Assembly (NCBI RefSeq): GCF_000820005.1
Contig: NZ_CDBL01000034.1
Coordinates: 17,611 to 81,610 of the forward strand
Reading direction: 5' to 3'
Length of the DNA stretch: 64,000 nucleotides
Source of the DNA: Aeromonas piscicola
GTDB taxonomy: Bacteria; Pseudomonadota; Gammaproteobacteria; Enterobacterales; Aeromonadaceae
Made by a program: the position numbers and the translations under genes. Positions 6,234 through 42,518 of the stretch are shown one piece after another. Position 1 is the stretch's first letter; every line of letters starts with the position of its first letter. Under the pieces are notes generated by a model. That model was given only the letters and a program-made list of their open reading frames with translations, was not told the origin of the DNA and searched no databases.

Positions 6234-6305
6234 GGGCCTTATCCTTGTGCGACATGTCATTGCTGTGTGGTGTGAGCGACACTCTCGTTGTTGTTGACGC
6301 CAGGG

Positions 6306-6878
6306 TTATGGCGTTGGCTGTCTCTGTTCAAGCAGCCGTTCCTGCTGCTGGGTGAGTTCACTGAGTTGTGTCATCTCGTCGATGGAGAGCACCTTCTCGG
6401 TATTGATGAGGATGACGAACTTGCCGTTCACCTTGCCCATGCCGCTGATGAAATCGGCCCGGATGCGGGCGCCAAAACTGGGCGGCGGCTCTATTTCGTT
6501 GCTGGGGATGGTCAGCACTTCCGAGACCGAATCCACCACGACACCAATGTCCTGATTGCCGTGCTCGGGATCATCCGGGTGCACCCCTTCAATAATGACG
6601 ATACAACTGCGGCGGGTGATGCTGGAGGGGGCGTTGCCAAAGCGGGCGTTGAGATCCACCACCGAGACCACTGCCCCCCTGAGGTTGATCACGCCACGGA
6701 TGAAGTTCGGCATCATGGGGATGGGGGTGATGTTGCCGTATTCGATGATCTCCTTGACCCCGAGAATGTTGATGGCAAACATCTCACCCTTGATCAGGAA
6801 GGTCAGATACTGGGCATCGCCCTGATTGTCATGAGCCAGCGTGACTGGCTGTGGGACCACTTCGGTTGACATGCTCAT
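6306..6878 (-). CDS. cheW: Chemotaxis coupling protein CheW
   Basis: 190 residues, single CheW SH3-like domain that docks CheA onto receptors. Recognisable segments include FLIKGEMFAINILGVKEI and the FIRGVINLRG core. It lies 6 bases upstream-to-stop from the preceding receptor gene and starts with ATG at 6878 behind GGAGAG. The C-terminal tail (about 165-190) is Gln-rich and extends past the core domain. Confidence 0.95.
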   Translation of the reverse strand: MSMSTEVVPQPVTLAHDNQGDAQYLTFLIKGEMFAINILGVKEIIEYGNITPIPMMPNFIRGVINLRGAVVSVVDLNARFGNAPSSITRRSCIVIIEGVHPDDPEHGNQDIGVVVDSVSEVLTIPSNEIEPPPSFGARIRADFISGMGKVNGKFVILINTEKVLSIDEMTQLSELTQQQERLLEQRQPTP

Positions 6879-6890
6879 GAGTCTCTCCGG

Positions 6891-8813: not shown

Positions 8814-8828
8814 GACGGGCTCCTGGCG

Positions 8829-11042: not shown

Positions 11043-11068
11043 GAATGACTCCTTGTCGCTGGGACTGC

Positions 11069-11395
11069 CTAGCCGTGATCAGCGTGGGGCATGAGGGTTG
11101 GATCGCCAAAGAAGGCTGTCAGTTGGCACAGCTCCAGCGCGTCGAGCACCGCATGGCTGTGCATGATCAGGTGCAGCGGATAACCGCCTTGTTGCGCCGT
11201 TTTCTTGGCCGCCAGCAACAGCTGCAAACCGGCACTGTCTATCTCGGATACCTGAGACAGGTCCAGCTCCAGCGTTTGCTGGCGATAAAGCAGGGGGGTG
11301 AGTGCCAGCTTGAGCTCGGCGGCTGTGTAGATGGTCATCTCCCCCGATACTTTGACCAGCGTCTTGTGTTCACCCGTCTCTATGTGTAGCGGCAT
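11069..11395 (-). CDS. STAS-domain protein of the chemotaxis operon
   Basis: 108 residues with an anti-sigma-antagonist (SpoIIAA-like) STAS fold. Ser54 in the motif EIDSAGLQ occupies the position phosphorylated in SpoIIAA. No kinase or phosphatase partner of the SpoIIAB/E type is in the window. Located between cheY and cheA, it is probably part of the signalling complex or a cross-talk input. STAS genes occur in several non-enteric chemotaxis operons, but the role is not established. Confidence 0.88.
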   Translation of the reverse strand: MPLHIETGEHKTLVKVSGEMTIYTAAELKLALTPLLYRQQTLELDLSQVSEIDSAGLQLLLAAKKTAQQGGYPLHLIMHSHAVLDALELCQLTAFFGDPTLMPHADHG

Positions 11396-11409
11396 GGGTA
11401 GCTCCAGAC

Positions 11410-11778
11410 TCAGGGCATGATGAGCTTGGCGACGGCCGCCAGCATCTGATCGGGCTGAAATGGCTTGACCACCCAGGCTTTGGCCCCTGCCGCCTGTCCT
11501 TCCTGCTTCTTGCTGTCCTGAGATTCCGTGGTCAGCATGATGACGGGGGTGAACTTGTAGCTGGCCAGTTTCTTGGCCTCCTTGACGAAGCTGATGCCAT
11601 CCATGTTCGGCATGTTGACGTCGCTGATGATGAGATTGATCTTCTTGCCGTCGAGTTTCCTGAGGGCATCCTTGCCATCGCAGGCTTCCATCACCTCGTA
11701 ACCGGCTCCCTTGAGTGTCATGCCGACGACTTGGCGAATAGTTGCCGAGTCATCCACGATCAGGACTGTTTTGGCCAT
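11410..11778 (-). CDS. cheY: Chemotaxis response regulator CheY
   Basis: 122-residue stand-alone receiver domain. The acidic pocket DD (9-10), phospho-acceptor Asp53 (ISDVNMPNMDG), a conserved Thr in LTTES and the Lys of VVKPF are all in place. It starts at 11778 behind AGGAGAC. In an accessory cluster it need not act on the flagellar switch; output other than swimming is possible. Confidence 0.94.
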   Translation of the reverse strand: MAKTVLIVDDSATIRQVVGMTLKGAGYEVMEACDGKDALRKLDGKKINLIISDVNMPNMDGISFVKEAKKLASYKFTPVIMLTTESQDSKKQEGQAAGAKAWVVKPFQPDQMLAAVAKLIMP

Positions 11779-11787
11779 ATCTGTCTC

Positions 11788-13017
11788 CTAGAAAAAAGTA
11801 ACGTCTGCACTGCTGGAGGAATTCACCATGGGTTGCTGGCGGCGGCCATGATGAATGTTGCGTTGTTCATCAGTGGCATAGGAGAGTTCCATGTCTGCCA
11901 GCCAGCTCTCCGCATCTATCTGGATGGGGCCGGACTGGTGTGTTCTGTTGCGTGAGGAAATCAGGTGGTCATTGAGGCTGTCCATGTTCTGGCGTACATG
12001 GTTGAGGATTTGACTGACTCTATCCTGGAACTGTAACGAAACAATGACATCGGAGATCTCGCGGTGGATCCCCGAGCTTTCGCTCTGCAGCAGGGCGGCC
12101 GACTCCGCCAGGCTGGTGGTGGCCATACGAAAGCGCTCCAGCACCTGCTCGATGGCGTGCTCCGAGTCACTGACGGCGGCTTGATCCCGTGCGGCAGCAC
12201 TTTCTGCTATCTGGAAGGCACGTCCAATGCCGCTATTGATGGTGTCGACCTTGTCCGTCATCTTCTGGGCCGTTTCGCTGGAGAGACGCGACAGGGTGCG
12301 TACCTCATCGGCCACCACTGCGAAGCCGCGACCGGCTTCACCAGCGCGAGCCGCCTCTATGGCGGCATTGAGTGCCAGCAAGTTGGTCTGGGAGGCAATC
12401 TTGGCCACGTCGAGCGCCATGGTATTGAGTTCTATGGTGTAGGCGGTGAGCGTCTTGATCTCTGCCAGCATGGCATCACGATTGGCTTGTGCGGAATGCA
12501 TGATGGCGAGCACCTGGTTGAGTTGGGCCTGGCTCTCGGCCAGTACGGCAGCCATGCCCGCCGATTTTGTTCCCCCAAGATCGCCGGCTGCATTGTGAGA
12601 GGCGGCCACCGCCTCTTCCAGCTTGGTGGTGAGCCCGGCGAAGCGCTGGGTCAGATCGATCATTGCCCCTTCGGTCTGCTGACGGGAGTTCTCAATCTGC
12701 TGTGACCAGATGGGGACGGCTTTCTCGCACACTTGCTCGAGCCCAATGATGGAGTGGCTGAGCTGTGCGGCAGACCAGGTATGGGCAGCCTCATCATCGT
12801 GATGACTCGTCTCCGGCCTGCCGTGATAGTGATGGGAACACCAGAGGGCGGCACCGAGAGCCAGCACGCCGTTGGCCAGCAGATAAGGCAGGGGGCTACC
12901 AGCGAGAATCAGCAGCAGGGTGCTGAGCAGGCCTATGCCCAGGCAGCATGCCCAACTCACCGGGTCCCAGAATGCAATGGTTTCTGCCGTTTTGTGATCT
13001 GTCATACGCAAACTCAT
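11788..13017 (-). CDS. Short methyl-accepting protein, first gene of the chemotaxis operon
   Basis: 409 residues. Two closely spaced N-terminal hydrophobic segments (about 18-60) with little periplasmic sequence are followed by a coiled-coil signalling domain containing [20 protein letters not shown] and a C-terminal [18 protein letters not shown] segment. It lacks HAMP and a sizable sensor domain, so it may sense internal or membrane-linked signals through a partner. The tail ends DVTFF, which does not fit the CheR pentapeptide. ATG at 13017 (a second in-frame ATG at 13005). The AT-rich region upstream should hold the operon promoter. Confidence 0.9.
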
Positions 13018-13277
13018 CCCTGCACGTGAGTCGGGGTGGGAACAAGCGGTTATCCCACTGGTGACAGAGAGGATGATCCACGCCCGAACCCATTAGTTAC
13101 AAATGGCTCAGTAAGGTTAGCGCAAAAAAATAACTTGGTTACAAATCGGTCCTATTCGGGGGGGGCTACTGATAAAACTGGAATATGAAGGCAGCAGAAG
13201 GGGCTCTGGCTAAACGAGAGCGCAGTGAAGTGGCGGATAACGAAGCGTGGGGATAGCGCGGAAGTAAGCACAGAGAT

Positions 13278-13305
13278 AAAAAAGGAGCCTGATGACCCAG
13301 GCTCC
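13278..13305 (-). terminator. Rho-independent terminator of the fabH-like gene
   Basis: On the minus strand GGAGCCTG, a six-base loop and CAGGCTCC are followed by six T. It lies just after the stop codon at 13315. Confidence 0.88.
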
Positions 13306-13314
13306 TGATGAGGA

Positions 13315-14403
13315 TTAGGCCTGGTTGGCGTGGGCCTTCTGGCACCCTTCGACCGCATGGGCAATCAGCTCAAGCGCGCTCTTGTCGCACGGGGGCAGTT
13401 CGGCATCGCATGAGTTGATGGGGGTGACGCGATCGCCCCATTTGATGATGGCGGCGCCCCAGGTCAGACCGGCACCGAAGGCTGCGGTGAGCAGATAGGA
13501 GTTCGGCTTGACGCGGCCTTGCTCCAGCGCTTCGCACAGGGCGATGGGCACGGTAGCGGCGGAGGTATTGCCGTAGTTTTCGATGTTGACCATCACCTTC
13601 TCCATGGGGGCGTTCATGCGCTTGGCCAGGGTTTCGATGATGCGGATGTTGGCCTGGTGCGGCACTATGAGATCGACCTGTTCAGGGTCTATGCCAGCCT
13701 GAGCGAGCACTGAGCTGGTGGCTTCTCCCATGCCGCGCACGGCGCGTTTGAAGATCTCCGGGCCTTCGAAGTTGAAGGTGAAGAGGCCATCGACATCGGC
13801 AAAACGCACTCGATCGGTACCAAAGTTCGGGACGTGCAGTATCTCCCGCGCTTCGCTGTCACAGCCGAGCTTGTTGGCGATAAGGCCGCACTCTTGCTCG
13901 CTTGCTTCGATCACCACGGCACCTGCGCCATCGCCAAACAGCACCGCAGTATCGCGACGCGCCCAGTCCAGCAGATAGGTCAGGCGCTCGGCACCGATCA
14001 CCAGCACCTTCTTCATCATGCCGGTCTGCACCAGTGAGGTGGCGACGGAAAGGGAATAGACGAAACCGGTGCAGGCAGCGTTTAGGTCGAACACGGCGGC
14101 GTTGACGGCACCGAGCTTCTTCTGCACCGCAGAGGCGGCATTGGGTAGCAGGTTATCCGGAGTCGCGGTCGCCAGTATGATGCCATCGAGATCGCTCGCT
14201 TCCAGGCCCGCACAGGCGAGGGCGCGGCGACCGGCCAGGGTGGCGAGATCCGAGGTACTGACGTGGGAGATCCGGCGGGCCTTGATACCGGTTCGCGGAT
14301 AGATCCATTCATCCGACGTATCCATGATGGTGCTGAGGTCATCGTTGGTCAGCACTGAGGGAGGCAGACATTTGCCCCAGCCGGTGATATTGGCGTATTT
14401 CAT
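13315..14403 (-). CDS. fabH: 3-oxoacyl-ACP synthase III (FabH family)
   Basis: 362 residues. KAS III enzymes condense acyl-CoA with malonyl-ACP to start fatty-acid synthesis. Catalytic Cys111 (AACTGF), His249 (VPHQAN) and Asn279 (NYGNTSA) form the expected triad, and [13 protein letters not shown] is the C-terminal signature. The protein carries a C-terminal extension of about 35 residues rich in Cys and Ala beyond the usual end. It stands alone rather than in a fab operon, so it may be a second FabH with a different acyl preference. ATG at 14403; the frame extends to 14532 without support. Confidence 0.88.
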
Positions 14404-31212: not shown

Positions 31213-32115
31213 TCATGGCAACGAAGGCGCGGCGGGCTCCTCCGGCTTGCGGGCGGCCGGCGACTTGCCCAGCATGCCGAGCAGGGCGCCCCCGATGATG
31301 AAGGCCCCGGCCAGCAGGTGACGGGGCGTCAGCTGTTCGCCATTGAGCAGCACCAGAGCCAAGGTACTCAGCAGCGGCGTCAGATAGGCCAGCGCCCCGA
31401 TGCGACGGGGATCTCCGTCTCGCAGCGCCAGATACCAGGTGACGAAGGCCGCCCCCATGGGCCCGAGCGCCAGCCCCAGGATCAGCCACCAGTCGCCGGC
31501 GGGGATCTGTTCGAGAGGCAGCGGCCCTTCCAGCCAGAGTGCCAGCAGCAGTGCCAGTAATCCGGCGGGTAGGCAGGCCGCTGCCGTCACCACAGCCGGG
31601 GCGGGGGGCAGCCGGCGGGAGAGCACCGAGTAGGCGCCCCAGATGATGGCGGCGCCGAGCGCCAGCAGGTAGCCGGGCAGATAGGCCTGCTGCAGCTGCA
31701 ACTCGCCGTTGACCATCACCAGCACGGAACCCGCCAGCCCGAGCGCGCCGGCCAGCAGGTGGCGGGCATGGAGCGGATGACCCGGCAGCAGCAGGGGGGT
31801 GAACAGTATGATGCACAGGGGCCAGAGGTAATTGATGAGGTTCGCTTCCAGCACGGGGGCGTGGCGAAAGCTCATGAACAGCAGCAGATGGTAGAACAGC
31901 AGCGCGGCCACCGTGACCAACCAGGTGATGGGGCGAGCCCGCCACCGGCGCCAGAACGGCAGGGCACCGGCGCCACAGAAGAAGAGCACCAATCCCACCA
32001 GCACCAGAGGCGACACGCTGGTGATCCGGGAGGTGAGCGCCGCCAGCGAGGCCCACAGCAGTATGGTCAGCAGTGCAAAACCGGTGGACCTGTCCCACCA
32101 GGAAGAAGCAGACAT
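31213..32115 (-). CDS. EamA/DMT-family exporter
   Basis: 300 residues with about ten membrane helices in two EamA repeats. Segments such as EANLINYLWPLCIILF and GAIIWGAYSVLSRRL resemble the YddG-type aromatic amino-acid exporters. Encoded 95 bases upstream-to-stop from the orphan MCP gene, same strand, without an obvious terminator between them. Substrate is a guess. Confidence 0.85.
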   Translation of the reverse strand: MSASSWWDRSTGFALLTILLWASLAALTSRITSVSPLVLVGLVLFFCGAGALPFWRRWRARPITWLVTVAALLFYHLLLFMSFRHAPVLEANLINYLWPLCIILFTPLLLPGHPLHARHLLAGALGLAGSVLVMVNGELQLQQAYLPGYLLALGAAIIWGAYSVLSRRLPPAPAVVTAAACLPAGLLALLLALWLEGPLPLEQIPAGDWWLILGLALGPMGAAFVTWYLALRDGDPRRIGALAYLTPLLSTLALVLLNGEQLTPRHLLAGAFIIGGALLGMLGKSPAARKPEEPAAPSLP

Positions 32116-32171: not shown

Positions 32172-32182
32172 CCTTGCCTGAT

Positions 32183-32290
32183 CTAATGGCTGCCGAACTC
32201 GTCCTCATTCAGACTGGTATTGGCTTGCGCTGCTACGCCCCAAAGCAGTAGCAGGAGAAATAGGAATAGCCAATTACATTGGCTGAGCAT
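32183..32290 (-). CDS. Small membrane or secreted peptide, 35 residues
   Basis: Below the length usually called as a gene. It begins with ATG at 32290, has a hydrophobic run FLFLLLLLWGVAAQA (residues 9-23) ending in a possible signal-peptidase site (AQA-N), and a polar acidic tail NTSLNEDEFGSH. A GGATTCC stretch precedes the start and a good intrinsic terminator (32137-32171) follows the stop, which supports a dedicated transcript. It is either a single-helix membrane peptide or a tiny secreted peptide. Function unknown. Confidence 0.5.
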   Translation of the reverse strand: MLSQCNWLFLFLLLLLWGVAAQANTSLNEDEFGSH

Positions 32291-32357
32291 TAAAGGAATC
32301 CAACGAAAATTGGGCGCGTATTGTAAGTGCATTTAAAAGGCAGCAGCCAACATCAAT

Positions 32358-32568
32358 TTACTCAATATTGATCCGCGACATACAGACATACCGACGGGCT
32401 GGTGTGAGCCGGGGGTTCCCCAGGATTGCAACAGGTGATAAGGCCTTTGTGTCGCACTGCCCGACGAGGCGCTTGGCGTTCTCTTCGGACTGAGGCCAGT
32501 TCAAGGAGATGTGGATAATCCCGGTGCTTGTCAGCCCGACAGCATGAGTGTTCCGCCGACCTTGTTAA
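32358..32568 (-). pseudogene. Possible coding remnant at the island edge
   Basis: A minus-strand frame stays open for about 69 codons from a TAA near 32569 to the TAA at 32358-32360 with a protein-like translation (TGIIHISLNWPQSEENAKR, then SRINIE at the end), but it has no start codon. A neighbouring frame reads SINKVGGTLMLSG into a stop, as if a frame had been lost. I do not recognise the family. It marks the left edge of the island. Confidence 0.3.
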
Positions 32569-32615
32569 TACTCAAGTTCGCGCGATATGTGCAACATGAT
32601 GGCGCTGGGGCTACT

Positions 32616-32655
32616 TGTCAGATGGGAGAGTTGTAGACCACTCGCCCATCTGACA
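32616..32655. repeat. Long inverted repeat after the helicase fusion
   Basis: TGTCAGATGGG and CCCATCTGACA form a perfect 11-bp stem that extends by GAGT/ACTC after one mismatch, with an eight-base loop. It directly abuts the stop codon of the exonuclease-RecQ-UvrD gene (32657). There is no T run. It could be the transcript end or a leftover of the island boundary. Confidence 0.6.
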
Positions 32656-32656
32656 G

Positions 32657-35600
32657 TTATAACTCCAGCTCGATAATGGGCAGCTCCCAACGTTCACTTC
32701 GAACTTGCTCCTGATAGGCATCGTCTTCCTGTTCTTTGCTTCGTTCAATCATGGCGATGACGTTGGCGTGCCGGATAGTGGCAAACTGGTGCTGCCAGAT
32801 CTGATGAGCACTTTGGGAGAGGCGAGCAACGGGTGTTTGACCATGGAAAACATGAAGTTTCTGACGCTTGTCGATATCGATACGCACTGCGTCTCCGACG
32901 TGTAATTGCCGCAGGTTCTGGTGTATCGAGTGGTTTTCGTTACTACGTCCGGCATAACCGATATCCAGTTGACGCATACCCATGATGGCAAAACGGCGTT
33001 GCCTTACAGGGGCGGTGGCCTGGATCGACTCGTTGTAACAACGTTCGGCAATGAGAGGGAGGTGGGGATGCCGCTGGTCAGCGCGGGACATAACCACTAA
33101 CCGTTGGATTGCTCGGGTCATCGCAACATAGAAGAGGCGTCGCTCTTCCTCGATGTTGTTCGCAGTGCTTTCTGCGCAGCGTTGCCATCCGCCATCAAGG
33201 ATCAAAACATGGCGATACTCTTCCCCTTTAACGCCATGCACCGTGCTGAGAAGCACGCCCTTGCCAAAGCGGATCTGGCGACGCTGCTCGCTCAAGTATT
33301 CGTAAAGGAACTGCAGGAAATAGTGCGCTGACAGCGCTTGCTCTCCCTGACTCTCCTGCCATTGGGCAATCAGATCGTACAACAAGGCCTCCCAGCGGTT
33401 TGCCTGATCAAGGGGAGGGAGTGGGCCGGCCAGTTGTTGCGCTGTCAGGAGTGCGTGGCCTTGTTGATGTAACCAGTTCTGGTAACGCAAGATCTCGCGA
33501 CAGCGATGTATCGGGAAGCCATGCTCTCGATCCAGGGTAAATCTGCAGGGAATAGAAGCATCAGCGAGTGCTGAACGTACCCATGCCAGCTCTTCTTTAT
33601 CCAACCCATTGCGAGCCAGTACTGCGATAGACTCCAGCGGGCATGTCGGATCTTTTTCACGAATCAGTGTGATGTGTCTGACGATTTCAGCGGCCTGTTG
33701 GGCAGCGTCAGTACAGGATTGTACGATGACTTTGCCGCGTGAAGTCTCCAGCCCTTCCCAAGCGCCACCCGGTACCTCCATCTTGCGCCGTTCATCGATC
33801 ACAATGGGATGCGAACGCTTCATGCGATCCAGATTGTGTTCTATCAGCTGGTTAGCCGTTTCGATGATGTGGCTTGTTGAGCGGTAGTTCCAGGTCAGGT
33901 AGTGCGTCTGGGAGTTGTAATCTTGCTCGAAGCGACGGATAAAGCTGACGTTCGCTTCGCGGAAGGCGTAGATAGACTGGTCGTCATCACCCACCGCCAT
34001 CAGGTGCAGGCGCGCTTCTTCATCCTCTTCGCTTTTTCCAACCAGTGCGGCGATAAGTTGGTACTGCTGCTCGTCAATATCCTGATATTCGTCGACGAGC
34101 AGAAATTGCAGCCCTCCGAGCAGCTTTTCCCGCTGCTCTTCCAATTCGAGACCGAGCTGGCTCTGCTCTCCCCGGAGCAGCTTGATAGCGTCATCAATGA
34201 TGGTGGTAAAGTCGATATCGTCTGATGTCCGGTTTTGCACCGCATTGCCTGTCAGGCTCATTGCAAGACCGTGAAAGGTGAATACCGAAACCCGAGCTCC
34301 GTCACGCCCCAGCAGTTCGGTCAGGCGTCGGCGCAGGGACATCGCCGCATTATGGTTGTAACAAAGCAACATGATCTTGGATGGGGCGACTTGCTTGACC
34401 CGCATCAGGTAGGCGCAGCGGTGGATAATCACCTTGCTCTTGCCTGAACCCGGGCCTGCCAGTACCAGCAAGTTTTGCTCGGGTGGTGCCTGGACGATCT
34501 GCTCCTGTGCCCGGTTGTGAAGATCTTCGACGATGCGTTTCCAGGAGTGTTCGCTGGTCGCCAGCTCCAGGATCTTGTTGCGCCCTTTGAAGTAGTGACC
34601 GAGGAACTTGTCAGCTTCCATGGAGAAGTAGTCTGTCACCAGCTTTTTGGCTTGCTTGAAGTGTTCCAGACTGATGCGGGCGTATTCATTCATCACATGG
34701 ATCTGAATCACCTTCTGGCGATAGTGATGCTCAAGCGGCTGATAGTCTGCTTTGTTGTATTGCTGCTGCCGCTCCGCCGTCAGCGTGAGGGTCATGGCGC
34801 TTCGGAACACGGCGAGACCATTTTGCAGCACGATGGCGTGTTGCTCATGCAGGTAGAGCAGTGCCCGCTCGGCCCCTTTGAGCAGCCACTCCTGCTGGCT
34901 GCTTGCCTCCCGCTTGTTCATGAGCTGAGCCACATCCATGTCTTCTCGCAGGTATTTGACCAGTTGTTCCAGGGCAAACGACAGCATTACCTGGCGCTGG
35001 ACACTCTCTTCGCTGCTTGCCAACAGGGTGTAGAGAAAATCGAGGGTGGCACCTGTGACGCGATGGCGTTGATCAATCGTCTGCTCAATCTGGGACCAGG
35101 TACGGTTGAAGGTGAGTTGGTAGAGATCCCGAGAGAGATATTTGACATCAATGGAGCCTTTCTCGCCCCCCGAGCGACCATCCTGGGACCAGCTGGTCAG
35201 CAAATTGCGCAGCAAGCCAGGGTTACTCCGTTCATGCCCCAGATCTTTGATGGCCTGATTGACCAGTCGAATGTTAAAGATCAGACCTTGCCCTGTATCA
35301 GGTTCGGGTTCTTGTTCACGCAAGGTGTCCAGCATCGCCTTTTCAATACTGTGCACTTGCCCGCAGAGCACCCGGGCGTTGTCTCTTCCTTTGGGGCGAA
35401 GCCAGGTAGTCAGTAACATCCCCTGAGAGAGCAGACCTACATCCGCCATTTGGGTGAGTACCCGCATCACTTCGCTGGCCTGAACACCACTTCCTTGGTC
35501 CGCCATGTATTGGCCTGCCTCTTCGGCAATGGTATCGGCACTGAGACCATCATCATCGGCAGCACTCATCAGCGCCTGGATAACAGCTTGCCAGATGGCG

Positions 35601-37855
35601 TTGGCCTTGGGAGCCAGTTTCAGACTGTCTACCCTTTTCATCGCCTCCTCGGTGGACGCAAACAGGGGGCGTCCCTGAAATACCTGAGTGATGTTGTCGC
35701 TGCGCTCCAGATAGCCAGCTCGCTCGAGCCAGGCGATAGCTGTCTTGACCTTGGTATCCGCATTGTTGTCATCGGCAGCGAAGCTGGTTTCCACCTCTGG
35801 CTGGTTGATGAGCTCTGCGCTGGTTGCGACCAGTGGCGGGTTGTTCTCCTGCTTGCCTCCTTTGCTGGCCCTGAGTCTTATTCCGCGCAGGATCTGTTTG
35901 ATATCGCGCAGGCTGACCTCACTCATGGCTTCGAGCTGGAACTGTTTCTCGATGTCTTGTGCATCAAACAGCAGCACGCAGTGGGCTTGCTCTGTATCGC
36001 GGCCCGCTCGCCCCGCTTCTTGCAAATAGTTCTCGAGCGAGCCGGGGATATCGGCATGAATGACCAGACGCACATCATCCTTGTCGATGCCCATCCCAAA
36101 GGCATTAGTCGCGCAGATGACCCGGATCTCGCCACTGATAAATTGTTCGAGGGTTGCTTTCTTTTGGGCACTGTCCATTCGGGCGTAAAAGCGCGCGACG
36201 GTGAGGGATTGTTGCTGGCCGAGGAAATCAGCCAGCTCGTCCACGCTACGCTTGGTTGCGCAGTAGATAACACAGGAGCCGGGCTTCTCCCCGCCAAAGA
36301 ACTGCTCGAGCAGGTTGAGGATATGGCCCTGTTTATTGAGGCCTGGGCACTCAACGACGGCATATTCGAGGTTGGTACGTTCAACCCCCCCTTCCAGTCT
36401 GCGAAGCGGTCGGGGCTGCTTGTCGAGAAACTGTGCGCAGATATCCTCAATCACATCCGGCTTGGCAGTGGCGGTATAGCAGAAGACAGGAGGCATGGGG
36501 ACCTGCTGCTCGTTGGCAATGGTGGCGATGGCCTTGGCGCAGTAGAGATAGTCAGGGCGAAAATCATGTCCCCATTTCGACAGGCAGTGCGCTTCGTCAA
36601 ATACCCAGCCACCGATCTGACGTTGTCGTATTGCTTGTTTGACAGTGCGGTTACGAAGCTGCTCGGGGGAGATATAGAGCAGGGCGATATCCCCCATGCG
36701 GATCTGCTCAAGAATCGCGCCTCGCTCTGGTAGCGTCAGCAGCCCCGAGATGGCGGCAACCCCTTCGATACCGGCCTTGTATTTAAGGTTGTCCACCTGA
36801 TCCTTCATCAGTGCCTGCAGGGGGGAGATCACGACCGTGAGCGCGCCACTGCGCTGGTTGCGAACCAGTGCAGGGAGTTGGTAGCAGAGCGACTTGCCGC
36901 CGCTGGTGGGGAGGATCCCGAGCAGTGCGACGCCAGCCATGGCTTCCTCGATCAAGGTCTTCTGCAATGGTGTCCCATCAGGCAAATTACGGAAGTTGTC
37001 GAGCTCAAAGATGCGTTGCAGATGGCGGCGTGCGTCGTGGTTCTCCAGACAATAACTGCAGTCGGCATGACCACAGTGGCGCTCGCGGACAGTGTGAATG
37101 ATCTCTGCTGTTTGGGGAAAGCGGCGCCAAATCCAGGGTGGCAGCACAGAGTTGCCGCCGGAAACGGGCAACCAGGCGCAGGCATAAGCCAACGGTAACA
37201 GCAGCATAGGTTGACGCAGGGCATCGCCAATCACTCGGTTGAGCTGATTGGGGCAAGCCTTCTCATGGGCAATGCTCTTGATAAGGGTGGGTAGCTCGGA
37301 GACCCTTACTGGAGGACAGCCCGTAAGCCTTGCAAACACCAGTGACAGACCCTGAGTGTTAAATTGCGCCATGACTCCCTGGCTGAACAGGTGTTGATAA
37401 AGCTGCAATTGGGGTAGGGGTAAGGCTTGCAGGGCTATCAACTGTTCCGAGAAAATCTGCAAGGCGAGCCTTGCATCAGCGACCGGATCATTGAGGGTAT
37501 CCCGAACCAGTTTGTAATCCTTGACCAAGCGGTGATAGGGGTTTTTGGGAAAGGCAATGGGAGATAGATAGAGGGTATCTATTACCGGTTTTTCGAGAAG
37601 CAACTGGGGGCGTACAGCCTGTTTGGCCAACCAGGGGAGATCAAAATCGAGAATATTGTGGCCAAGGACCACATCAGCCTCTTGTGCCAGCGTATTTAAC
37701 TCCTTGAGGGAGAGATCCTGCGGGCCCTTGAGATTGAGCTCACGATCAGCCAAAAGTGCACCCAGATGACGGAGCTTTTCATCCCGGGTCAGTTCAAGGT
37801 CAAAGGAAAGAATCTTGTCATCCCCAAACAGGGCCACGACATCAGTCGAGTTCAT
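32657..37855 (-). CDS. Exonuclease-RecQ-UvrD triple fusion helicase
   Basis: 1732 residues. The N-terminal DnaQ/DEDD-like exonuclease (about 1-135) has FDLE (19-22), GHNILDFD (66-73) and DPVADA (124-129). A His/Cys cluster (HCGHADCSYC, about 260-270) may bind zinc. The RecQ-type SF2 helicase follows: Walker A PTSGGKS (about 317-323), DEAH (421-424), QEAGRAGRD. The C-terminal third is a UvrD/Rep SF1A helicase: Walker A AGPGSGKS (about 1135), DEYQD (about 1256), GDDDQSIYAF, WNYRS and STVHGVKGEEY. Two different helicases and a nuclease in one chain suggest DNA unwinding and degradation, as in anti-phage systems. ATG 37855 follows GGAG; a TTG precedes it by one codon. Divergent from the methyltransferase-HNH pair. 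Confidence 0.9.
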   Translation of the reverse strand: MNSTDVVALFGDDKILSFDLELTRDEKLRHLGALLADRELNLKGPQDLSLKELNTLAQEADVVLGHNILDFDLPWLAKQAVRPQLLLEKPVIDTLYLSPIAFPKNPYHRLVKDYKLVRDTLNDPVADARLALQIFSEQLIALQALPLPQLQLYQHLFSQGVMAQFNTQGLSLVFARLTGCPPVRVSELPTLIKSIAHEKACPNQLNRVIGDALRQPMLLLPLAYACAWLPVSGGNSVLPPWIWRRFPQTAEIIHTVRERHCGHADCSYCLENHDARRHLQRIFELDNFRNLPDGTPLQKTLIEEAMAGVALLGILPTSGGKSLCYQLPALVRNQRSGALTVVISPLQALMKDQVDNLKYKAGIEGVAAISGLLTLPERGAILEQIRMGDIALLYISPEQLRNRTVKQAIRQRQIGGWVFDEAHCLSKWGHDFRPDYLYCAKAIATIANEQQVPMPPVFCYTATAKPDVIEDICAQFLDKQPRPLRRLEGGVERTNLEYAVVECPGLNKQGHILNLLEQFFGGEKPGSCVIYCATKRSVDELADFLGQQQSLTVARFYARMDSAQKKATLEQFISGEIRVICATNAFGMGIDKDDVRLVIHADIPGSLENYLQEAGRAGRDTEQAHCVLLFDAQDIEKQFQLEAMSEVSLRDIKQILRGIRLRASKGGKQENNPPLVATSAELINQPEVETSFAADDNNADTKVKTAIAWLERAGYLERSDNITQVFQGRPLFASTEEAMKRVDSLKLAPKANAIWQAVIQALMSAADDDGLSADTIAEEAGQYMADQGSGVQASEVMRVLTQMADVGLLSQGMLLTTWLRPKGRDNARVLCGQVHSIEKAMLDTLREQEPEPDTGQGLIFNIRLVNQAIKDLGHERSNPGLLRNLLTSWSQDGRSGGEKGSIDVKYLSRDLYQLTFNRTWSQIEQTIDQRHRVTGATLDFLYTLLASSEESVQRQVMLSFALEQLVKYLREDMDVAQLMNKREASSQQEWLLKGAERALLYLHEQHAIVLQNGLAVFRSAMTLTLTAERQQQYNKADYQPLEHHYRQKVIQIHVMNEYARISLEHFKQAKKLVTDYFSMEADKFLGHYFKGRNKILELATSEHSWKRIVEDLHNRAQEQIVQAPPEQNLLVLAGPGSGKSKVIIHRCAYLMRVKQVAPSKIMLLCYNHNAAMSLRRRLTELLGRDGARVSVFTFHGLAMSLTGNAVQNRTSDDIDFTTIIDDAIKLLRGEQSQLGLELEEQREKLLGGLQFLLVDEYQDIDEQQYQLIAALVGKSEEDEEARLHLMAVGDDDQSIYAFREANVSFIRRFEQDYNSQTHYLTWNYRSTSHIIETANQLIEHNLDRMKRSHPIVIDERRKMEVPGGAWEGLETSRGKVIVQSCTDAAQQAAEIVRHITLIREKDPTCPLESIAVLARNGLDKEELAWVRSALADASIPCRFTLDREHGFPIHRCREILRYQNWLHQQGHALLTAQQLAGPLPPLDQANRWEALLYDLIAQWQESQGEQALSAHYFLQFLYEYLSEQRRQIRFGKGVLLSTVHGVKGEEYRHVLILDGGWQRCAESTANNIEEERRLFYVAMTRAIQRLVVMSRADQRHPHLPLIAERCYNESIQATAPVRQRRFAIMGMRQLDIGYAGRSNENHSIHQNLRQLHVGDAVRIDIDKRQKLHVFHGQTPVARLSQSAHQIWQHQFATIRHANVIAMIERSKEQEDDAYQEQVRSERWELPIIELEL

Positions 37856-38116
37856 CAATAGCCATCTCCATCTGGCGTTGACATCTCATGGCGATAATAA
37901 GTGCCAAAAGATCAGTGAGTTGGCCGAATATTACCCGAAATGTTGAACGGTGGCATCATTCAGAGCCCTCTGGTCTCAGTTCTTTTGGCTGGCATCCCGT
38001 TTTGGTAAATGTCCCTGCATCCTTAATGGCTCATGTTTGGAAAGTGTTGTCCTTGTCATGGTCAACCCACTGATCTTGTGAGACTATTTCCCTTCCTTCT
38101 CCGATCGGAACGCATT

Positions 38117-38743
38117 GTGTCCCTCGATTACTACCAGCGCCACGCCACCGAATTGGCGACCCGTTACCAGCAGGTATCTGCTCGCGCAGTTCACGGCGAC
38201 TGGCTCACTCTGCTGGAGCCTTGGCTCCTGGCTGCGCCGCGCAGGTTGCTCGATGTGGGGGCTGGCAGTGGTCGTGATGCCGCGTTTTTAGCGGGGCTCC
38301 ATCAGGGCCACTGTGTGGTCGCTGTCGAGCCCTGTCAGGCACTCGCTCTACAGGGGCAATGTCATACCCGTGAGGCTGCGGTGGCGTGGGTCAGTGACGC
38401 TATGCCTGCTCTCTCTCGCGTGACAGGCACTTTTGATCTGATTTTGCTCAGTGCAGTCTGGATGCATCTACCCCCGGAGTCTCGCCCCGTGGCTCTGGCA
38501 CGTATTCATGAGCTGCTTTCATCAGATGGTTATCTGGTACTGAGTCTGCGCCTGGTTATCTCGGAGCAGGAGATGCGGGAGCGAGCCATGTATCCGGTGG
38601 CTGCCGATGAAGTGGAGCGGCTTGCATTGGAGGAGGGGATGACACTTCTCCATGTGTCAGAACCACAGGGGGATGCCTTGGCGCGTACCGGCTTGAGTTG
38701 GCAGAGTCTGATCCTTGGGGGCGAACATGCACGCCTCCCCTGA
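38117..38743 (+). CDS. Class I SAM-dependent methyltransferase
   Basis: About 208 residues from GTG 38117 (SLDYYQRHATELATRY); an in-frame ATG at 38033 would add 28 residues with a less typical sequence. Motif I is LLDVGAGSGRDAAFLA, motif II ends in AVEP, and FDLILLSAVWMHLPP is the post-II region. It resembles small-molecule or protein methyltransferases more than DNA methylases: no DPPY or PC motif is present. It overlaps the HNH gene by 17 bases and so is coupled with it. The intervening 260 bases to the helicase fusion form a divergent promoter region. Confidence 0.82.
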   Translation: MSLDYYQRHATELATRYQQVSARAVHGDWLTLLEPWLLAAPRRLLDVGAGSGRDAAFLAGLHQGHCVVAVEPCQALALQGQCHTREAAVAWVSDAMPALSRVTGTFDLILLSAVWMHLPPESRPVALARIHELLSSDGYLVLSLRLVISEQEMRERAMYPVAADEVERLALEEGMTLLHVSEPQGDALARTGLSWQSLILGGEHARLP

Positions 38744-39788
38744 GCAGCAACTCGCCTTTATTGCTTATTTGCAACGCATCTTTAACGAAGGCGATTTTGT
38801 TGCCACTTACAAGTGCGCCTTGCTCCACGGGATTGCAGATATCGCGATTGAGCGCAGTACCGAGACCCATGATCTGATGGCGGCGCGCACTATTACGCTG
38901 GACGAACTGGCCACCAAGTTTGTGGAGCTCTATTGGCAGCACAGTCTGCCCTACTCGGCGACGGGAGAAACGGCTACCTTGCTCAAACAGAGCAGCGGTC
39001 GTCAGGCCATCATGCTGACGGAGTTGTCCAGGCTGCGTGAAGAGGGTGTCCGTTCGGTGACTGCACTGCGTCGTCACGACGCCTGGCGGCCTCTCCTTGC
39101 CCGAGTTCGGCGAATCCTCATAGAGGGCCCTTTGTGGCGTCTGCAGATCCTGGGTGGGCGAGAGGAGTGCCACCTTTATCCGCACCAAAGGGGCGCGGAT
39201 CATATCTGCCTTAACCCCGGCATTCTCTACAGTCTTCACCGCTTTCACGATCTGGTGGTTTCCCTCTCCCGACAGCATTGGCTGCAGCTTATCTGCGACA
39301 TCAAGGGGAATCAGCCACTGATTGGCCCAAGTGTTGGGCTGGAGAATTTTCTTTTTGGTTCAAGCCGTCAGGCGCTGGGGCGGGTAGGGGATGTATTGAG
39401 GGACTTGCAGGGGGGAACCTGTTTTTACTGTAACAGGGCGATACACGGGAGTGGTGAGGTAGACCATTTCATCCCCTGGCGTCGTTATCCAATCGATTTG
39501 GGCCACAACTTCGTACTGGCACACGCCAACTGTAACCGGAGCAAACGGGATTTTCTCGCCGCTCCCGAGCACAGGGATGCTTGGTACGAGCAGAATATCC
39601 TGACTCACGGGGCGTACCTTACTGGCGAGCTGGCCCCCCTGGTGAGTGTCGATGCCGAGCGTTCTACCGCCATCGCCACTTGGGCCTATCAGCAAGCCGC
39701 CCGTGAGCATGCCCGGCTGTGGTGTGGTATTGACGAGTTTGTGGACGTGACAGCCCCTAGTGTGAATATTCCTCTGCGCTTTTTATGA
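38727..39788 (+). CDS. HNH endonuclease
   Basis: 353 residues. The HNH/ββα-Me domain lies at about 230-285: CFYCNR, EVDHFIPW, HNFVLAHANCN and SKRD provide the zinc-binding Cys pairs and catalytic His. The N-terminal two-thirds (about 1-225) has no motif I recognise and may be a target-recognition or regulatory domain. ATG 38727 follows GGGGG within the 3' end of the methyltransferase gene. Its 3' end overlaps the opposite-strand methyltransferase gene by 32 bases. Confidence 0.85.
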   Translation: MHASPEQQLAFIAYLQRIFNEGDFVATYKCALLHGIADIAIERSTETHDLMAARTITLDELATKFVELYWQHSLPYSATGETATLLKQSSGRQAIMLTELSRLREEGVRSVTALRRHDAWRPLLARVRRILIEGPLWRLQILGGREECHLYPHQRGADHICLNPGILYSLHRFHDLVVSLSRQHWLQLICDIKGNQPLIGPSVGLENFLFGSSRQALGRVGDVLRDLQGGTCFYCNRAIHGSGEVDHFIPWRRYPIDLGHNFVLAHANCNRSKRDFLAAPEHRDAWYEQNILTHGAYLTGELAPLVSVDAERSTAIATWAYQQAAREHARLWCGIDEFVDVTAPSVNIPLRFL

Positions 39789-41681
39789 GACGTTGAGGGT
39801 TTAAAGCTTGATAAAAAAGGGCCACCTCTTGCGAGGTGGCCCTTTCCAAACGTTTGGTTGGCCGGGTCTGCTCATTGATGTAGTCAAAAAAATCGACCTC
39901 CTGCTCGGCCATCTTGATCTTCACCCGCTCCACCAGATAGGGAATGGGTTTGTTGAAGTCGTCATATCCCATCAGGCTCACCTTGCCGGAGCGAATGTGC
40001 AGTTTGATCACATCGATATCGGTCACGTCACCATAGAGTTGGCAAGCCGCCCCCAGGTAGACACGCAGCAGCGGCGGTAATTGCGCAATAAAGCATTTGT
40101 GCAGCAGCAGTGAATGGCTGGGATAGAGCAGGCTGTTGGGGAGCTGTTGATGGGCCAGCTCGCAGGCCTGGTTGATCAGGGCAATGTCGGCAATCTGATA
40201 GAGCAGCGCTTTGGCGGCCTGCTGTGCCTGTGGGTTGCCACCGAAAAAGGCTTTGATATCCCGCTGCAACTCGCTGGGGTACTGGGTATAGGCTTGTCGT
40301 TTTCCAAACAGGTTGAGTGCCAGGTAGACCAGCAGATCTTGTTGTCGCTCTTGTTCGGCCTGTTTTAGCTGGGCCAGGTCAAAATGCTGACCAAGCAGGG
40401 TCATGGCTTTGCGATGGCTACCTGCTATCCCTTTTAACTCGCCGCTTTGTTCAAATTCGTCATTGGCCGGAATTCGGCCAAGGGTTAGCGCCCGCTGCCA
40501 GAAGGCTTCAAACAGTGGTTGATGGCGAGCGATCAGCAGTGCTGCAGTGGCCTGATGGTTGGGGGTGGGCGAGGTCAGCTGCTGCCAGCTGTGGCTTCGA
40601 CGTTGGCGCTGTGCCAAAAAGCGCTGCTCTTCGAGCTTGTCTTTGAACACGTAGAAAATGCCGGGGCCGACGGCGATGGCATTCTCATCCAGTGTTTTGT
40701 CTATGTAGTGTTTGAGCTCGCTTTGGTTGTAGTAGCGCTGAAAGGTGTTGCGAGAGGTGATGACGCCATCTTTATAAGGGGTGAACTGGGCAATAAAGCT
40801 GTCGTTGGCCAGCATGGCCGAGATGACCAGCAGGGTTTGGGTCAGCTCCCAGGCGCCGAGCAGTGCCTCCATTCGCTCATCTTGATCCTCAATCACGTTA
40901 ATCACAAAACCGAGATTGACCAGATGGGAGATCACCTTCTCGCCATCCGGGCGAAAGTTCGGGTCCCAGCCCAGCGCGTCAATACCGTGTGCTTCCAGCT
41001 CACGCAGGTCATCCCCCCGACCGCAGCCGTAATCAAACAACGCATGGTCGCCGTTGAGGTAACCATGGCGGGCCAGCATCTTCATGGGGGCCGAGAGCTC
41101 ATGGCGAACCAGCGCCGTTTTATGGCGATCAATCGGTGGGCCCCCCTCTTCGGGCGGCAGGGCGGAGGTGCGAAACAGGCGTCCATCAACCAGTTGATAG
41201 CCATGTTTTGCGATAAGCCGCTCCCACGAGGCTTTAAAGCCAATCATGCGGGGATGATCGTAGAGTCCCGCTAGCTCCCCCTCTTCGGTGATCTGGCGGC
41301 AGCTCTCTGCCTGTGGGTGATCGGGGCCAGCATGCACTCTTTGCGATGCAGAATGGGGGGATTGTCCTGGTTGTCGTAGCGGGTAACGGTATGACTCAGT
41401 TTGGCCAGATCAATGGTGACGCTCTGCTTGAGGCTGGGATAGGCCTCATCAAAGAAGCTGGGGTAGCTCAGCAGTGACAGCCGGAAATCTTTCTTGGCCA
41501 ATTTGAGCAGGTCCCACTCATTTTCTGGCAGCTTTAGCGCTTGAGCTACGGCGCAGACAAAGCGATAAAGCAGCGGGCTGGTAGCAGCCAGGGTCTCTTT
41601 GTGCAGATAGACCGCATCGGGCAGCACTTTTTTGTATGGCAGGGCTGAGACCAGTTGCGCGAAACGCTCGGGAGTCAGCAT
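39757..41681 (-). pseudogene. Putative phosphorothioation-associated methyltransferase (TIGR04096-like), frameshifted
   Basis: Two adjacent frames together give one protein of about 640 residues. The first (41681 to 41271) ends soon after PPILHRKECMLAP; the second carries DHPQAESCRQITEEGELAGLYDHPRMIGF and continues to the stop at 39757. Adding one C to the four-C run at 41323-41326 (plus-strand gggg) joins them as MLAPDHPQ. The body has a SAM motif FDYGCGRGDDLRELEAHGIDALGWDPNF and VINVIEDQDER. The family assignment is from memory. The break could be a real phase-type mutation or a sequencing error. The start ATG 41681 overlaps the stop of the upstream gene (TGATG). Confidence 0.78.
39811..39844 (-). 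terminator. Terminator-like hairpin inside the 3' end of the methyltransferase frame
   Basis: Perfect 12-bp stem (AAGGGCCACCTC, loop TTGC, GAGGTGGCCCTT). On the minus strand six T follow immediately, 55 bases before the stop codon of the gene that contains it. On the plus strand only T3 follows, 29 bases after the HNH stop. It is well placed to end the HNH transcript and oddly placed for the methyltransferase. Confidence 0.6.
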
Positions 41682-42220
41682 CAGCACATTCCTTTGAGTT
41701 GGGTGAGTGTCAGCCGCTTGGGAATCCGTCTTTCACTGTGTGTGGTTAGCTCGACCAAGGCTCGCTGTTGCTCGGGTCCATAGCTGATATGCAGTGGCCG
41801 GTCTGGACCATAGAGATAGAGACGATCAAATGGGGTGTGTTGTGCCAGCCAAAGGGCGACTTGATAGCTGTTTTGCCCTGGGTATATCAGATCAACCGCT
41901 GCCCCTTGCCGAGGACAGACAAGTCTTCCTCGCTGGTTGAGTTCACAGGCCGCATGTTGGTCTAGGGTGGGGGCTATGCCGGGGGAGGGATTGGCCAGAA
42001 TCGTTTTACGCAGCACAGCCCCGCAAAATCCGTAGGTGAGTGACACGGGTCCGAACATGTGTACCAGCGGGTCGAGAATATGCGTCGCCAGTTCACGATA
42101 GGCCAACCAGCTCTCGGTTTGTTCCGGCAAGTTTGGGCATTGGATGCGCTGCCAGGTTTCACCACAGTGAAACAGCATCTCGAAGGTAAAGTGGCGGCTA
42201 CATGAGCGGTAGATATCCAT
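41681..42220 (-). CDS. Peptidase M15-like protein with altered active site
   Basis: 179 residues. The layout follows zinc M15 peptidases: an N-terminal FHCGETW helix, ILDPLVHMFGPVSLTYGF, then RQGAAVDLIYPG, PFDRLYLYG and LHISYG near the end. The usual SGYR and SxHxxGxAxD motifs are changed: the residue three before the Gly is Pro instead of the first zinc His, while the Asp (AAVD) and late His (LHISYG) remain. A non-catalytic or re-purposed M15 fold is likely. Its stop overlaps the start of the frameshifted methyltransferase (TGATG), so the two form one operon. It is next to tRNA-Arg. Confidence 0.6.
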   Translation of the reverse strand: MDIYRSCSRHFTFEMLFHCGETWQRIQCPNLPEQTESWLAYRELATHILDPLVHMFGPVSLTYGFCGAVLRKTILANPSPGIAPTLDQHAACELNQRGRLVCPRQGAAVDLIYPGQNSYQVALWLAQHTPFDRLYLYGPDRPLHISYGPEQQRALVELTTHSERRIPKRLTLTQLKGMC

Positions 42221-42390
42221 TGCTCATTTACTCTTTCCATGGCGAAAAGGTCAATGCAGGGCTTCCATTCGCTTAAGGAATGGTAAGCGCTGTTTTTGTA
42301 TGGTCTGCCTAGTACTCAAGGCTGACGCAGAGATACCGTAACAAAAGATGACACATTCGAGAATTTGGGATGTGCAGAAACACCCAAGCC

Positions 42391-42433
42391 AAAAACGACC
42401 AAGGGGTTGGCATCGTCATGATGCCAACCCCTT
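42391..42433 (-). terminator. Terminator downstream of tRNA-Arg
   Basis: A perfect 14-bp stem AAGGGGTTGGCATC/GATGCCAACCCCTT with a five-base loop begins 9 bases after the tRNA 3' end. T5 follows 5 bases further on the minus strand, and T4 is adjacent on the plus strand. Confidence 0.75.
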
Positions 42434-42441
42434 GTTTTATA

Positions 42442-42518
42442 TGGTGCTCCCGACTGGAGTCGAACCAGTGGCCTGTCCCTTAGGAGGGGACCGCTCTATC
42501 CTACTGAGCTACGGGAGC
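42442..42518 (-). tRNA. tRNA-Arg (anticodon CCT)
   Basis: 77 bases on the minus strand. The acceptor GCTCCCG pairs with CGGGAGC and the 3' ACCA is encoded. The anticodon stem GTCCC/GGGAC closes the loop CTCCTAA with anticodon CCT (codon AGG). The T arm is CTGGTTCGACTCCAG. Its 3' end faces the 32.6-42.2 kb island, the usual orientation for tRNA-targeted integration, but I found no repeat of the tRNA end at the other edge and no integrase. Confidence 0.95.

What the first reader, a model, noticed from the sequence alone, without database searches (positions are those of the whole stretch)
32616..42220. Candidate undescribed defence module at the tRNA-Arg(CCT) site
Five proteins stand together: an exonuclease-RecQ-UvrD fusion, a SAM methyltransferase overlapping an HNH nuclease, a TIGR04096-like putative methyltransferase (broken) and a degenerate M15-like protein. 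Nuclease plus helicase plus methyltransferase at the 3' side of a tRNA is the make-up of anti-phage islands. The Dnd/Ssp core genes expected beside TIGR04096 are not in the window, so the combination may be a distinct system. No integrase or exact tRNA-end repeat is visible, so mobility is inferred.
Basis: partly seen in the sequence, partly recalled or inferred. Interest (0 to 1): 0.8.

Follow-up and report, generated by a model that had tools for sequence, protein, structure and literature searches.

The report
Dnd remnant joined to nuclease cassette
The five genes next to this Aeromonas tRNA are not one new defence system but two pieces: the leftover front end of a lost DNA-sulphur-modification system, and an intact, apparently undescribed set of a methyltransferase, an HNH nuclease and a giant exonuclease-helicase that came from another insertion site.

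Summary
The genes exist, but not as one system. (1) The M15-like gene and TIGR04096 (42220-39859) are the stump of a dnd operon. Four relatives keep an intact pair followed by dndBCDE, and DndC was found in exactly those 4 of 37 genomes. Here TIGR04096 is frameshifted and cut at profile position 416 of 478, with no dndC found in the genome. (2) At the cut lie 45 bp (39814-39858) identical to the tmRNA (ssrA) end and terminator of other Aeromonas. The block 32194-39858 is colinear (94.7%) with one that abuts intact ssrA in A. finlandensis; G030 and G021 share the joint. (3) That block holds genes under purifying selection: a DEDD-exonuclease/RecQ/UvrD fusion and a SAM methyltransferase overlapping an HNH nuclease. 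MT-HNH is a rare cassette, found elsewhere beside BREX, CRISPR I-F, McrBC and others; a HIT protein can replace the MT, and related MTs pair with SauUSI-like helicases. PADLOC 2.0 names no such system. Defence is likely but untested, and the RecQ-UvrD link was seen only in Aeromonas. 'Variable tRNA-site island' holds; 'five-gene module' does not.

The parts
31213..32115 (-). flank: YddG-like EamA transporter gene (left border of the variable site)
   Evidence: NCBIfam NF050091 E 2.3e-56, below its cut-off; relative in 32 of 37 genus genomes
32175..42388 (.). inserted segment relative to G004; homology to G004 stops at 32174 and resumes at 42389
   Evidence: blastn against empty and other occupied sites
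32657..37855 (-). DEDD-exonuclease / RecQ / UvrD fusion, 1732 aa from the ATG: exonuclease about residues 1-150, Cys-cluster linker, RecQ 278-650, UvrD about 1111-1600
   Evidence: dN/dS 0.05-0.11
38117..38743 (+). class I SAM methyltransferase (Methyltransf_11/23/25 type), probable GTG start at 38117 (ORF opens at 38033)
   Evidence: dN/dS 0.15-0.34
38727..39788 (+). HNH nuclease with an unassigned N-terminal helical domain; overlaps the MT gene (ORF opens at 38715)
   Evidence: Pfam HNH E 9.8e-6; invariant D246-H247 and N270 numbered from 38727; dN/dS 0.07-0.14
39814..39858 (-). ssrA scar: last 4 nt of tmRNA plus its terminator hairpin, identical (45/45) to the ssrA ends of G003, G008 and G034; the displaced ssrA end of this genome (contig C77) differs at 2 of 45
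39859..41687 (-). TIGR04096 (dnd_rel_methyl) remnant: frameshifted and 3' truncated
41681..42220 (-). M15-like protein of the dnd operon, full length, H89/D110/H144 conserved
42400..42434 (.). hairpin (self-complementary stretch) downstream of the tRNA, kept at empty sites
42442..42518 (-). tRNA-Arg(CCT), 3' end towards the island

Best explanation
The segment is a composite of two islands. A dnd operon (M15-like - TIGR04096 - dndBCDE) lost its core and keeps only its front end. Joined to it through an ssrA-end scar is a block that in another Aeromonas lies at ssrA, carrying a still-selected cassette: SAM methyltransferase plus HNH nuclease, divergent from a DEDD-exonuclease-RecQ-UvrD protein. 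Most likely mechanism (inferred): the HNH protein recognises and cuts invading DNA, perhaps by its modification state as SauUSI does; the small MT, replaceable by a HIT protein, is its dedicated partner or regulator rather than a protective DNA methylase; the exonuclease-RecQ-UvrD protein unwinds and resects DNA and may act on its own. Shown: composite structure, absence of the dnd core, the ssrA end at the joint, kept motifs and purifying selection, MT/HIT-HNH pairing in several taxa, frequent defence genes nearby. Inferred: anti-phage function, type IV-like action, the role of the MT, cooperation of RecQ-UvrD with MT-HNH, and the order of events.
For: Dnd stump: intact M15-TIGR04096 followed by dndB/C/D/E-like genes in G003, G008, G034 and G028 (models passed for G003 and in part for G028); DndC in 4 of 37 genomes, the same four. 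In the 3 of 3 genomes where TIGR04096 lies beside MT-HNH it is truncated at the same joint and further broken: frameshifts at different places in G000 and G030, a large deletion in G021. Scar: 45/45 identity to ssrA ends of other species at the TIGR04096 cut. Block colinear with the A. finlandensis ssrA locus (G013), 94.7% over 7.67 kb. Purifying selection. MT partner in 22 and HIT in 3 of the 27 HNH-family loci examined; 11 of these 27 have a defence gene or dnd remnant in the fetched flank (same calls and 72, 73). Related MTs lie beside or are fused to SauUSI-like PLD-DEAD proteins.
Against: No functional data. The defence-neighbour tally has no control. RecQ-UvrD and MT-HNH were seen together only in Aeromonas: 0 of 8 other gammaproteobacterial RecQ-UvrD loci, 0 of 3 plasmid loci and 0 of 5 viral-contig loci have MT-HNH in the fetched flank (some flanks are short). 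MT-HNH occurs without RecQ-UvrD in G015 and G009. The window MT is only about 25% identical to the MTs of most other cassettes (34% in G614). dN/dS does not by itself mark TIGR04096 as a pseudogene (0.10-0.14 against G030, 0.46 against G021; intact copies among themselves 0.11-0.16). The frameshift could be an assembly error; the truncation and missing dndC less easily so. Several genomes have metabolic genes, not islands, between the flanks.
Confidence: 0.65

Rival explanations
1. A single five-gene defence system: TIGR04096 and M15-like act with MT-HNH and RecQ-UvrD.
For: The five lie together in the same order in G000 and G030 (in G030 the contig ends inside the M15-like gene).
Against: TIGR04096 is broken in the 3 of 3 such genomes; M15-TIGR04096 is intact only where dndBCDE follows; an ssrA scar separates the halves; G013 has the MT-HNH/RecQ-UvrD block with no TIGR04096, and G015 and G009 have MT-HNH alone.
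Confidence: 0.05
2. RecQ-UvrD and MT-HNH are two independent systems that merely travel on one island.
For: Outside Aeromonas each was seen without the other; RecQ-UvrD is near type I R-M in Allochromatium and a type II MTase in G352.
Against: In Aeromonas the three intact HNH-linked copies (G000, G013, G030) are adjacent and divergent, so are relics in G021 and G017 (G017 without a detected MT), and in G023 RecQ-UvrD sits downstream of a different MT-nuclease pair. G000, G030, G021 and G013 share one block, so these are not independent cases.
Confidence: 0.5
3. MT-HNH is a selfish or homing-type cassette that inserts in defence islands, not a defence system.
For: Scattered distribution; other genes lie between MT and HNH in L115 and L117; HNH is common in homing enzymes (recalled).
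Against: Pairing with MT or HIT is kept across genera; an MT of the related family is fused to a SauUSI-like helicase in one plasmid; HNH carries an S24 domain in two loci; purifying selection on both genes.
Confidence: 0.15
4. The MT and HNH form a type II restriction-modification pair (protective DNA methylase plus restriction enzyme).
For: Overlapping MT and nuclease genes.
Against: The MT matches Methyltransf_11/23/25-type families and no PADLOC MTase_II model at E up to 0.1; a HIT protein can stand in its place.
Confidence: 0.08

Closest known systems
Dnd DNA phosphorothioation system (dndBCDE with TIGR04096)
   Same: M15-like (85-87% identical) and TIGR04096 (96% in the C-terminal part, 83-89% in the N-terminal part) are front genes of such an operon in G003, G008 and G034
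   Different: dndBCDE absent beside them and no dndC found in the genome; TIGR04096 frameshifted and truncated
SauUSI (PLD-DEAD-DUF3427 type IV restriction enzyme; PMC3874153, passages seen)
   Same: MTs related to the cassette's also pair with SauUSI-like PLD-DEAD proteins in G023, L120 and (fused) L122
   Different: the window pair has an HNH protein with no helicase and no DUF3427; specificity for modified DNA is untested
RecQ/BLM/WRN helicases and UvrD/PcrA
   Same: RecQ core and UvrD motifs; an N-terminal DEDD exonuclease, as in WRN (WRN layout recalled)
   Different: RecQ and UvrD fused in one 1732-residue chain; no RQC or HRDC family among the Pfam hits at E up to 1
Septu PtuB and PDC-M01B (PADLOC)
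   Same: weak HNH-domain similarity (E 5.9e-6 and 3.3e-5)
   Different: similarity is limited to the roughly 50-residue HNH motif; no PtuA hit among the six proteins scanned (best 25 rows for RecQ-UvrD)

Membership tests
Dnd system | core sulphur-modification genes dndC/D/E present | tested here: not met
   none among the six interval proteins scanned; TIGR03183 DndC: no match in G000, 4 of 37 genomes positive
Dnd system | TIGR04096 and M15-like genes at the head of the operon | tested here: met
   homologues in the same order in L034-L037; TIGR04096 damaged in the window
Type II restriction-modification | cognate DNA methyltransferase | tested here: not met
   no PADLOC MTase_II hit; only Methyltransf_11/23/25-type hits and mad2 at 3e-11; enzymatic activity untested
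SauUSI-like type IV restriction | PLD nuclease plus DEAD helicase plus DUF3427 in one chain | tested here: not met
   window HNH protein has only HNH hits in Pfam
SauUSI-like type IV restriction | cuts modified DNA only | not testable with these tools
   needs an enzyme assay
MT/HIT-HNH cassette (named here) | HNH protein of this family with an MT or HIT gene directly upstream or close by | tested here: met
   window MT ends at 38743, HNH starts at 38727; 22 of 27 loci with MT, 3 of 27 with HIT
RecQ-UvrD fusion family | DEDD exonuclease, RecQ and UvrD motifs in one chain | tested here: met
   motifs kept in 13 of 13 proteins; exonuclease model pLDDT 80, Foldseek to E. coli Pol II E 2.7e-4, probability 1.00, TM-score only 0.38
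tRNA-integrated mobile island | integrase and tRNA-end direct repeat | tested here: not met
   no integrase hit in the six proteins scanned; no repeat of the tRNA end at the left border. Other genomes carry a duplicated tRNA end 23-45 kb from the flank on the same contig (G003, G015, G001, G023)
named PADLOC 2.0 system | all components match one system's models | tested here: not met

The most novel reading that the evidence does not exclude
MT-HNH is one form of an undescribed two-gene immune family in which a small enzyme (TehB-like MT or HIT) licenses or restrains a nuclease (HNH, HNH-S24, or SauUSI-like PLD-DEAD with S24), with the S24 forms possibly linked to the SOS response, and in Aeromonas it works with a WRN-like exonuclease-RecQ-UvrD machine that degrades the cut DNA.
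Probability: 0.3. Interest if true: 0.75.

Novelty: new variant of a known kind. Interest (0 to 1): 0.5.

Why it matters
It shows how a 'novel system' can arise on paper from the joint of two islands, and gives a readable sign of it (an ssrA-end scar at a tRNA site). It also isolates a real candidate, the MT/HIT-HNH cassette, whose exchangeable partner and repeated position beside BREX, CRISPR-Cas and restriction systems make a clear, cheap plaque test worthwhile. It further marks M15-like plus TIGR04096 as a linked accessory pair of Dnd operons (fused in Methylibium).

Tried and rejected
Five-gene system: rejected (see rivals). Integration by an element-borne integrase at the tRNA: no integrase hit and no att repeat found in the window. 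HNH fold assignment: AlphaFold model pLDDT 65, best PDB match E 0.8; the PDB sequence profile finds only the HNH motif of Cas9 and others. Exonuclease region by sequence profile against PDB: only weak hits, best E 0.039. M15-like and intact TIGR04096 against PDB: no match. E. coli genomes and phage records: no match. Promoter scan of the divergent region: nothing. No control was run for the defence-neighbour tally. First thought that G013 holds a TIGR04096 relic: wrong; its match to the TIGR04096 tail is the ssrA end and HNH-side sequence, and the block there abuts a whole tmRNA. First thought that C77 holds this genome's ssrA: wrong; ARAGORN finds no tmRNA there, the gene is on C82, and C77 holds a displaced 36-nt tmRNA end plus terminator. 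Literature: TIGR04096 0 papers; the family's long name 1 (listing); HNH + SAM-dependent methyltransferase + HIT domain + BREX 0; RecQ + UvrD + fusion + defense island 1 (listing); DUF3427 + methyltransferase + defense 1 (passages of PMC3874153); dnd + phosphorothioat + ssrA + genomic island 0; YqaJ + DUF932 + genomic island + defense 1 (listing); two searches gave listings that I did not open. Rows dropped before counts: the paralogous MT of G023 was left out of the MT range; of 27 plasmid records with an HNH-family hit I fetched 14; the divergent HNH proteins of L121, L123 and L125 were left out of the tally of 27 loci; 13 of 37 genomes gave no flank-to-flank gap.

Full report
What is there. 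The window lies in an Aeromonas-type genome (related loci are titled A. popoffii, A. finlandensis, A. diversa, A. lacus and an Aeromonas MAG). The stated genes are present. Left of tRNA-Arg(CCT) (42442-42518, minus) lie, on the minus strand, an M15-like ORF (41681-42220) and TIGR04096 in two frames (41687-39859); then, on the plus strand, a SAM methyltransferase (MT) overlapped by an HNH protein (38117-39788); then a divergent 1732-residue exonuclease-RecQ-UvrD gene (37855-32657). Against G004, whose flanks are 97-99% identical, the inserted segment is 32175-42388.

The site is variable. The tRNA-side flank gene was found in 36 of 37 genus genomes (in G030 only tRNA-like places matched) and a relative of the yddG-like gene in 32 of 37. 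In the 24 genomes where both lie on one contig within 61 kb, the gap runs from 146 bp (G033, G016) to 60 kb (from the coordinates). The other 13 have no yddG hit at the threshold (5) or the flanks on different contigs, far apart or not both found (8). Several gaps hold metabolic genes rather than islands (read by eye). In G028, G015, G001 and G023 a DUF932-YqaJ-Gp3-like module lies next to the tRNA (by sequence; Pfam-tested in G028 only). Cargo near it includes Dnd in G028; a HEC-05 protein, a cytosine MTase and a partial DndH-like protein in G015; and a type III R-M pair with HEC-01 in G023. Two large proteins of G014 and one of G023 had no PADLOC hit.

The M15-TIGR04096 half is a dnd stump. 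In G003, G008 and G034 (at ssrA) and in G028 (at tRNA-Arg(CCT)) an intact M15-like gene and a 676-677 aa TIGR04096 are followed by four dnd-like genes. For G003 these pass the NCBIfam cut-offs of DndB, DndC, DndD and DndE; for G028 Pfam names DndB, DndE and a PAPS-reductase domain. DndC occurs in 4 of 37 genomes, exactly these four, and not in G000. The intact G003 TIGR04096 reaches profile position 476 of 478; the window copy stops at 416 and is frameshifted. Where TIGR04096 lies beside MT-HNH (G000, G030, G021) it ends at the same joint in 3 of 3 and is further broken: frameshifts at different places in G000 and G030, a large deletion in G021. The M15-like protein is full length here and keeps its His/Asp/His set in 6 of 6 homologues. 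In a Methylibium plasmid both are in one 918-aa frame.

The joint is an ssrA scar. At the TIGR04096 cut lie 45 bp identical to the last 4 nt of tmRNA plus its terminator in G003, G008 and G034. The same joint, with scar changes, is in G021 and G030. This genome's ssrA is on contig C82 without that terminator next to it; 36 nt of tmRNA end plus terminator lie displaced on C77, as after an insertion at ssrA (inferred), and differ from the scar at 2 of 45 positions. So the scar is probably not from this genome's ssrA. The block 32194-39858 is colinear at 94.7% with the A. finlandensis block (G013) that abuts a whole tmRNA and has no TIGR04096, while the tRNA-side flank of G013 is 90% identical. 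G015 also carries MT-HNH at ssrA. The simplest history, inferred: islands stacked at ssrA in a donor; dndBCDE was lost by a deletion up to a displaced ssrA end; the joined block moved to the tRNA-Arg site, where TIGR04096 keeps decaying.

The MT-HNH cassette. HNH-family genes are rare: 7 of 37 genus genomes, 2 of 369 class genomes and 3 of 398 phylum genomes, each count including G000; 27 of 72,556 plasmid records at E 1e-3, of which 13 cover at least 80% of the protein; 3 viral contigs; no phage record of 50,697. Of 27 loci examined (7 Aeromonas, G138, G614, G530, 14 of the 27 plasmid records, 3 viral contigs), 22 have an MT gene or a broken one upstream, 3 a HIT gene (L096, L097, L107), and 2 (a short relic contig and a fragment) neither. 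In L115 and L117 several genes, and in L112 a small ORF, lie between MT and HNH. Eleven of 27 have a defence gene or a dnd remnant in the fetched flank: BREX (L098, L099), CRISPR I-F (L113), McrBC and type I (L095), a DUF4011-REase helicase (L107), GmrSD_C-SNF2 and a type III-like nuclease (L112), SauUSI-like proteins (L117 by HMM, L116 by BLAST), and dnd remnants (G000, G030, G021). Type I R-M in L039 and L108 was read by eye only and is not counted. No control was run. HNH is fused to an S24 domain in L109 and L110. MTs like those of other cassettes also precede a SauUSI-like PLD-DEAD-S24 protein in G023 and a relative in L120, and one is fused to such a protein in L122. That SauUSI is a PLD-DEAD-DUF3427 enzyme cutting m5C and hm5C DNA is from passages of PMC3874153. 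Such MTs also occur with no HNH-family or SauUSI-like hit nearby (L126-L130). The window MT is a distant member (about 25% identity to most, 34% to that of G614).

The exonuclease-RecQ-UvrD protein. D-x-E, GHN-x4-D and the last D of the exonuclease, RecQ Walker A and DEAH, and UvrD Walker A and DEYQD are kept in 13 of 13 proteins. The model of residues 1-290 (pLDDT 80) matches E. coli Pol II best (E 2.7e-4, probability 1.00, TM-score 0.38), with DnaQ, RNase T, RNase D and TREX1 below; that this is the exonuclease domain of Pol II is inferred. Orthologues, some partial: 4 of 37 genus genomes, 9 of 369 class genomes including G000, 23 plasmid records at E 1e-100, 3 of them covering at least 80%, 5 viral contigs, no phage record at E 1e-60. 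Outside Aeromonas none of 8 genome loci, 3 plasmid loci or 5 viral-contig loci has MT-HNH in the fetched flank, so the link of the two halves is an Aeromonas matter so far.

Selection. Pairwise dN/dS of the window genes against Aeromonas relatives: RecQ-UvrD 0.05-0.11, HNH 0.07-0.14, MT 0.15-0.34 (paralogous G023 MT at 0.37 left out); TIGR04096 0.06-0.19 against intact copies, 0.10-0.14 against G030, 0.46 against G021 (147 codons); intact TIGR04096 copies among themselves 0.11-0.16. The module genes are kept by selection; the TIGR04096 values alone would not prove decay.

Verdict. A real island, a composite; two of the five genes are a Dnd relic, three are a candidate defence cassette that PADLOC 2.0 does not name as a system. 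DefenseFinder and newer PADLOC models were not available. Function rests on context and motifs.

Noticed in passing
G000 contigs C82:43297-43657 and C77:104119-104194 (L137, L138, L136): In this genome ssrA has lost its own terminator from its 3' side, and 36 nt of tmRNA end plus terminator lie on another contig: the sign of a further island at ssrA.
   Followed up: partly
L127 (Methylibium petroleiphilum RPME01) 7600-10356: TIGR04096 and the M15-like domain are fused in one 918-aa frame, with an MT related to the cassette's just upstream.
   Followed up: partly
L122 (Polaromonas sp. W11N) 4992-6749: MT fused to the front part of a SauUSI-like PLD-DEAD helicase; a transposase gene follows.
   Followed up: partly
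L109:9465-11009 and L110:7998-9539: HNH proteins with a C-terminal S24 (LexA-like) peptidase domain homologous to the C-terminus of the G023 PLD-DEAD protein: possible link to the SOS response.
   Followed up: no
L115:1404-8968; L117:5523-8707: Other genes (two huge proteins without PADLOC hits in L115) sit between MT and HNH, as if the pair framed a cargo slot.
   Followed up: partly
L066:8226-11267, L111:3593-7022, L112:1-3175: The same DUF932 - YqaJ - Gp3-like recombination-directionality trio sits beside tRNA-Arg(CCT) in Aeromonas and upstream of MT-HNH in two viral contigs (L112 by sequence only) whose HNH is 85-92% identical to that of an Acinetobacter plasmid.
   Followed up: partly
L132, L133, L134, L135: Exonuclease-RecQ-UvrD genes on IMG/VR contigs, in several cases near ORFs that read like phage terminase, portal or type III R-M genes (by eye).
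   Followed up: no
L059:1445-6874 (G015): 1809-aa protein whose C-terminal fifth resembles DndH, near a HEC-05 protein, at the same tRNA site, without dndC found in the genome.
   Followed up: no
L039 (A. diversa) 4510-14373: MT-HNH followed by what reads like a type I R-M operon with a DarTG-like pair nested inside (by eye).
   Followed up: no
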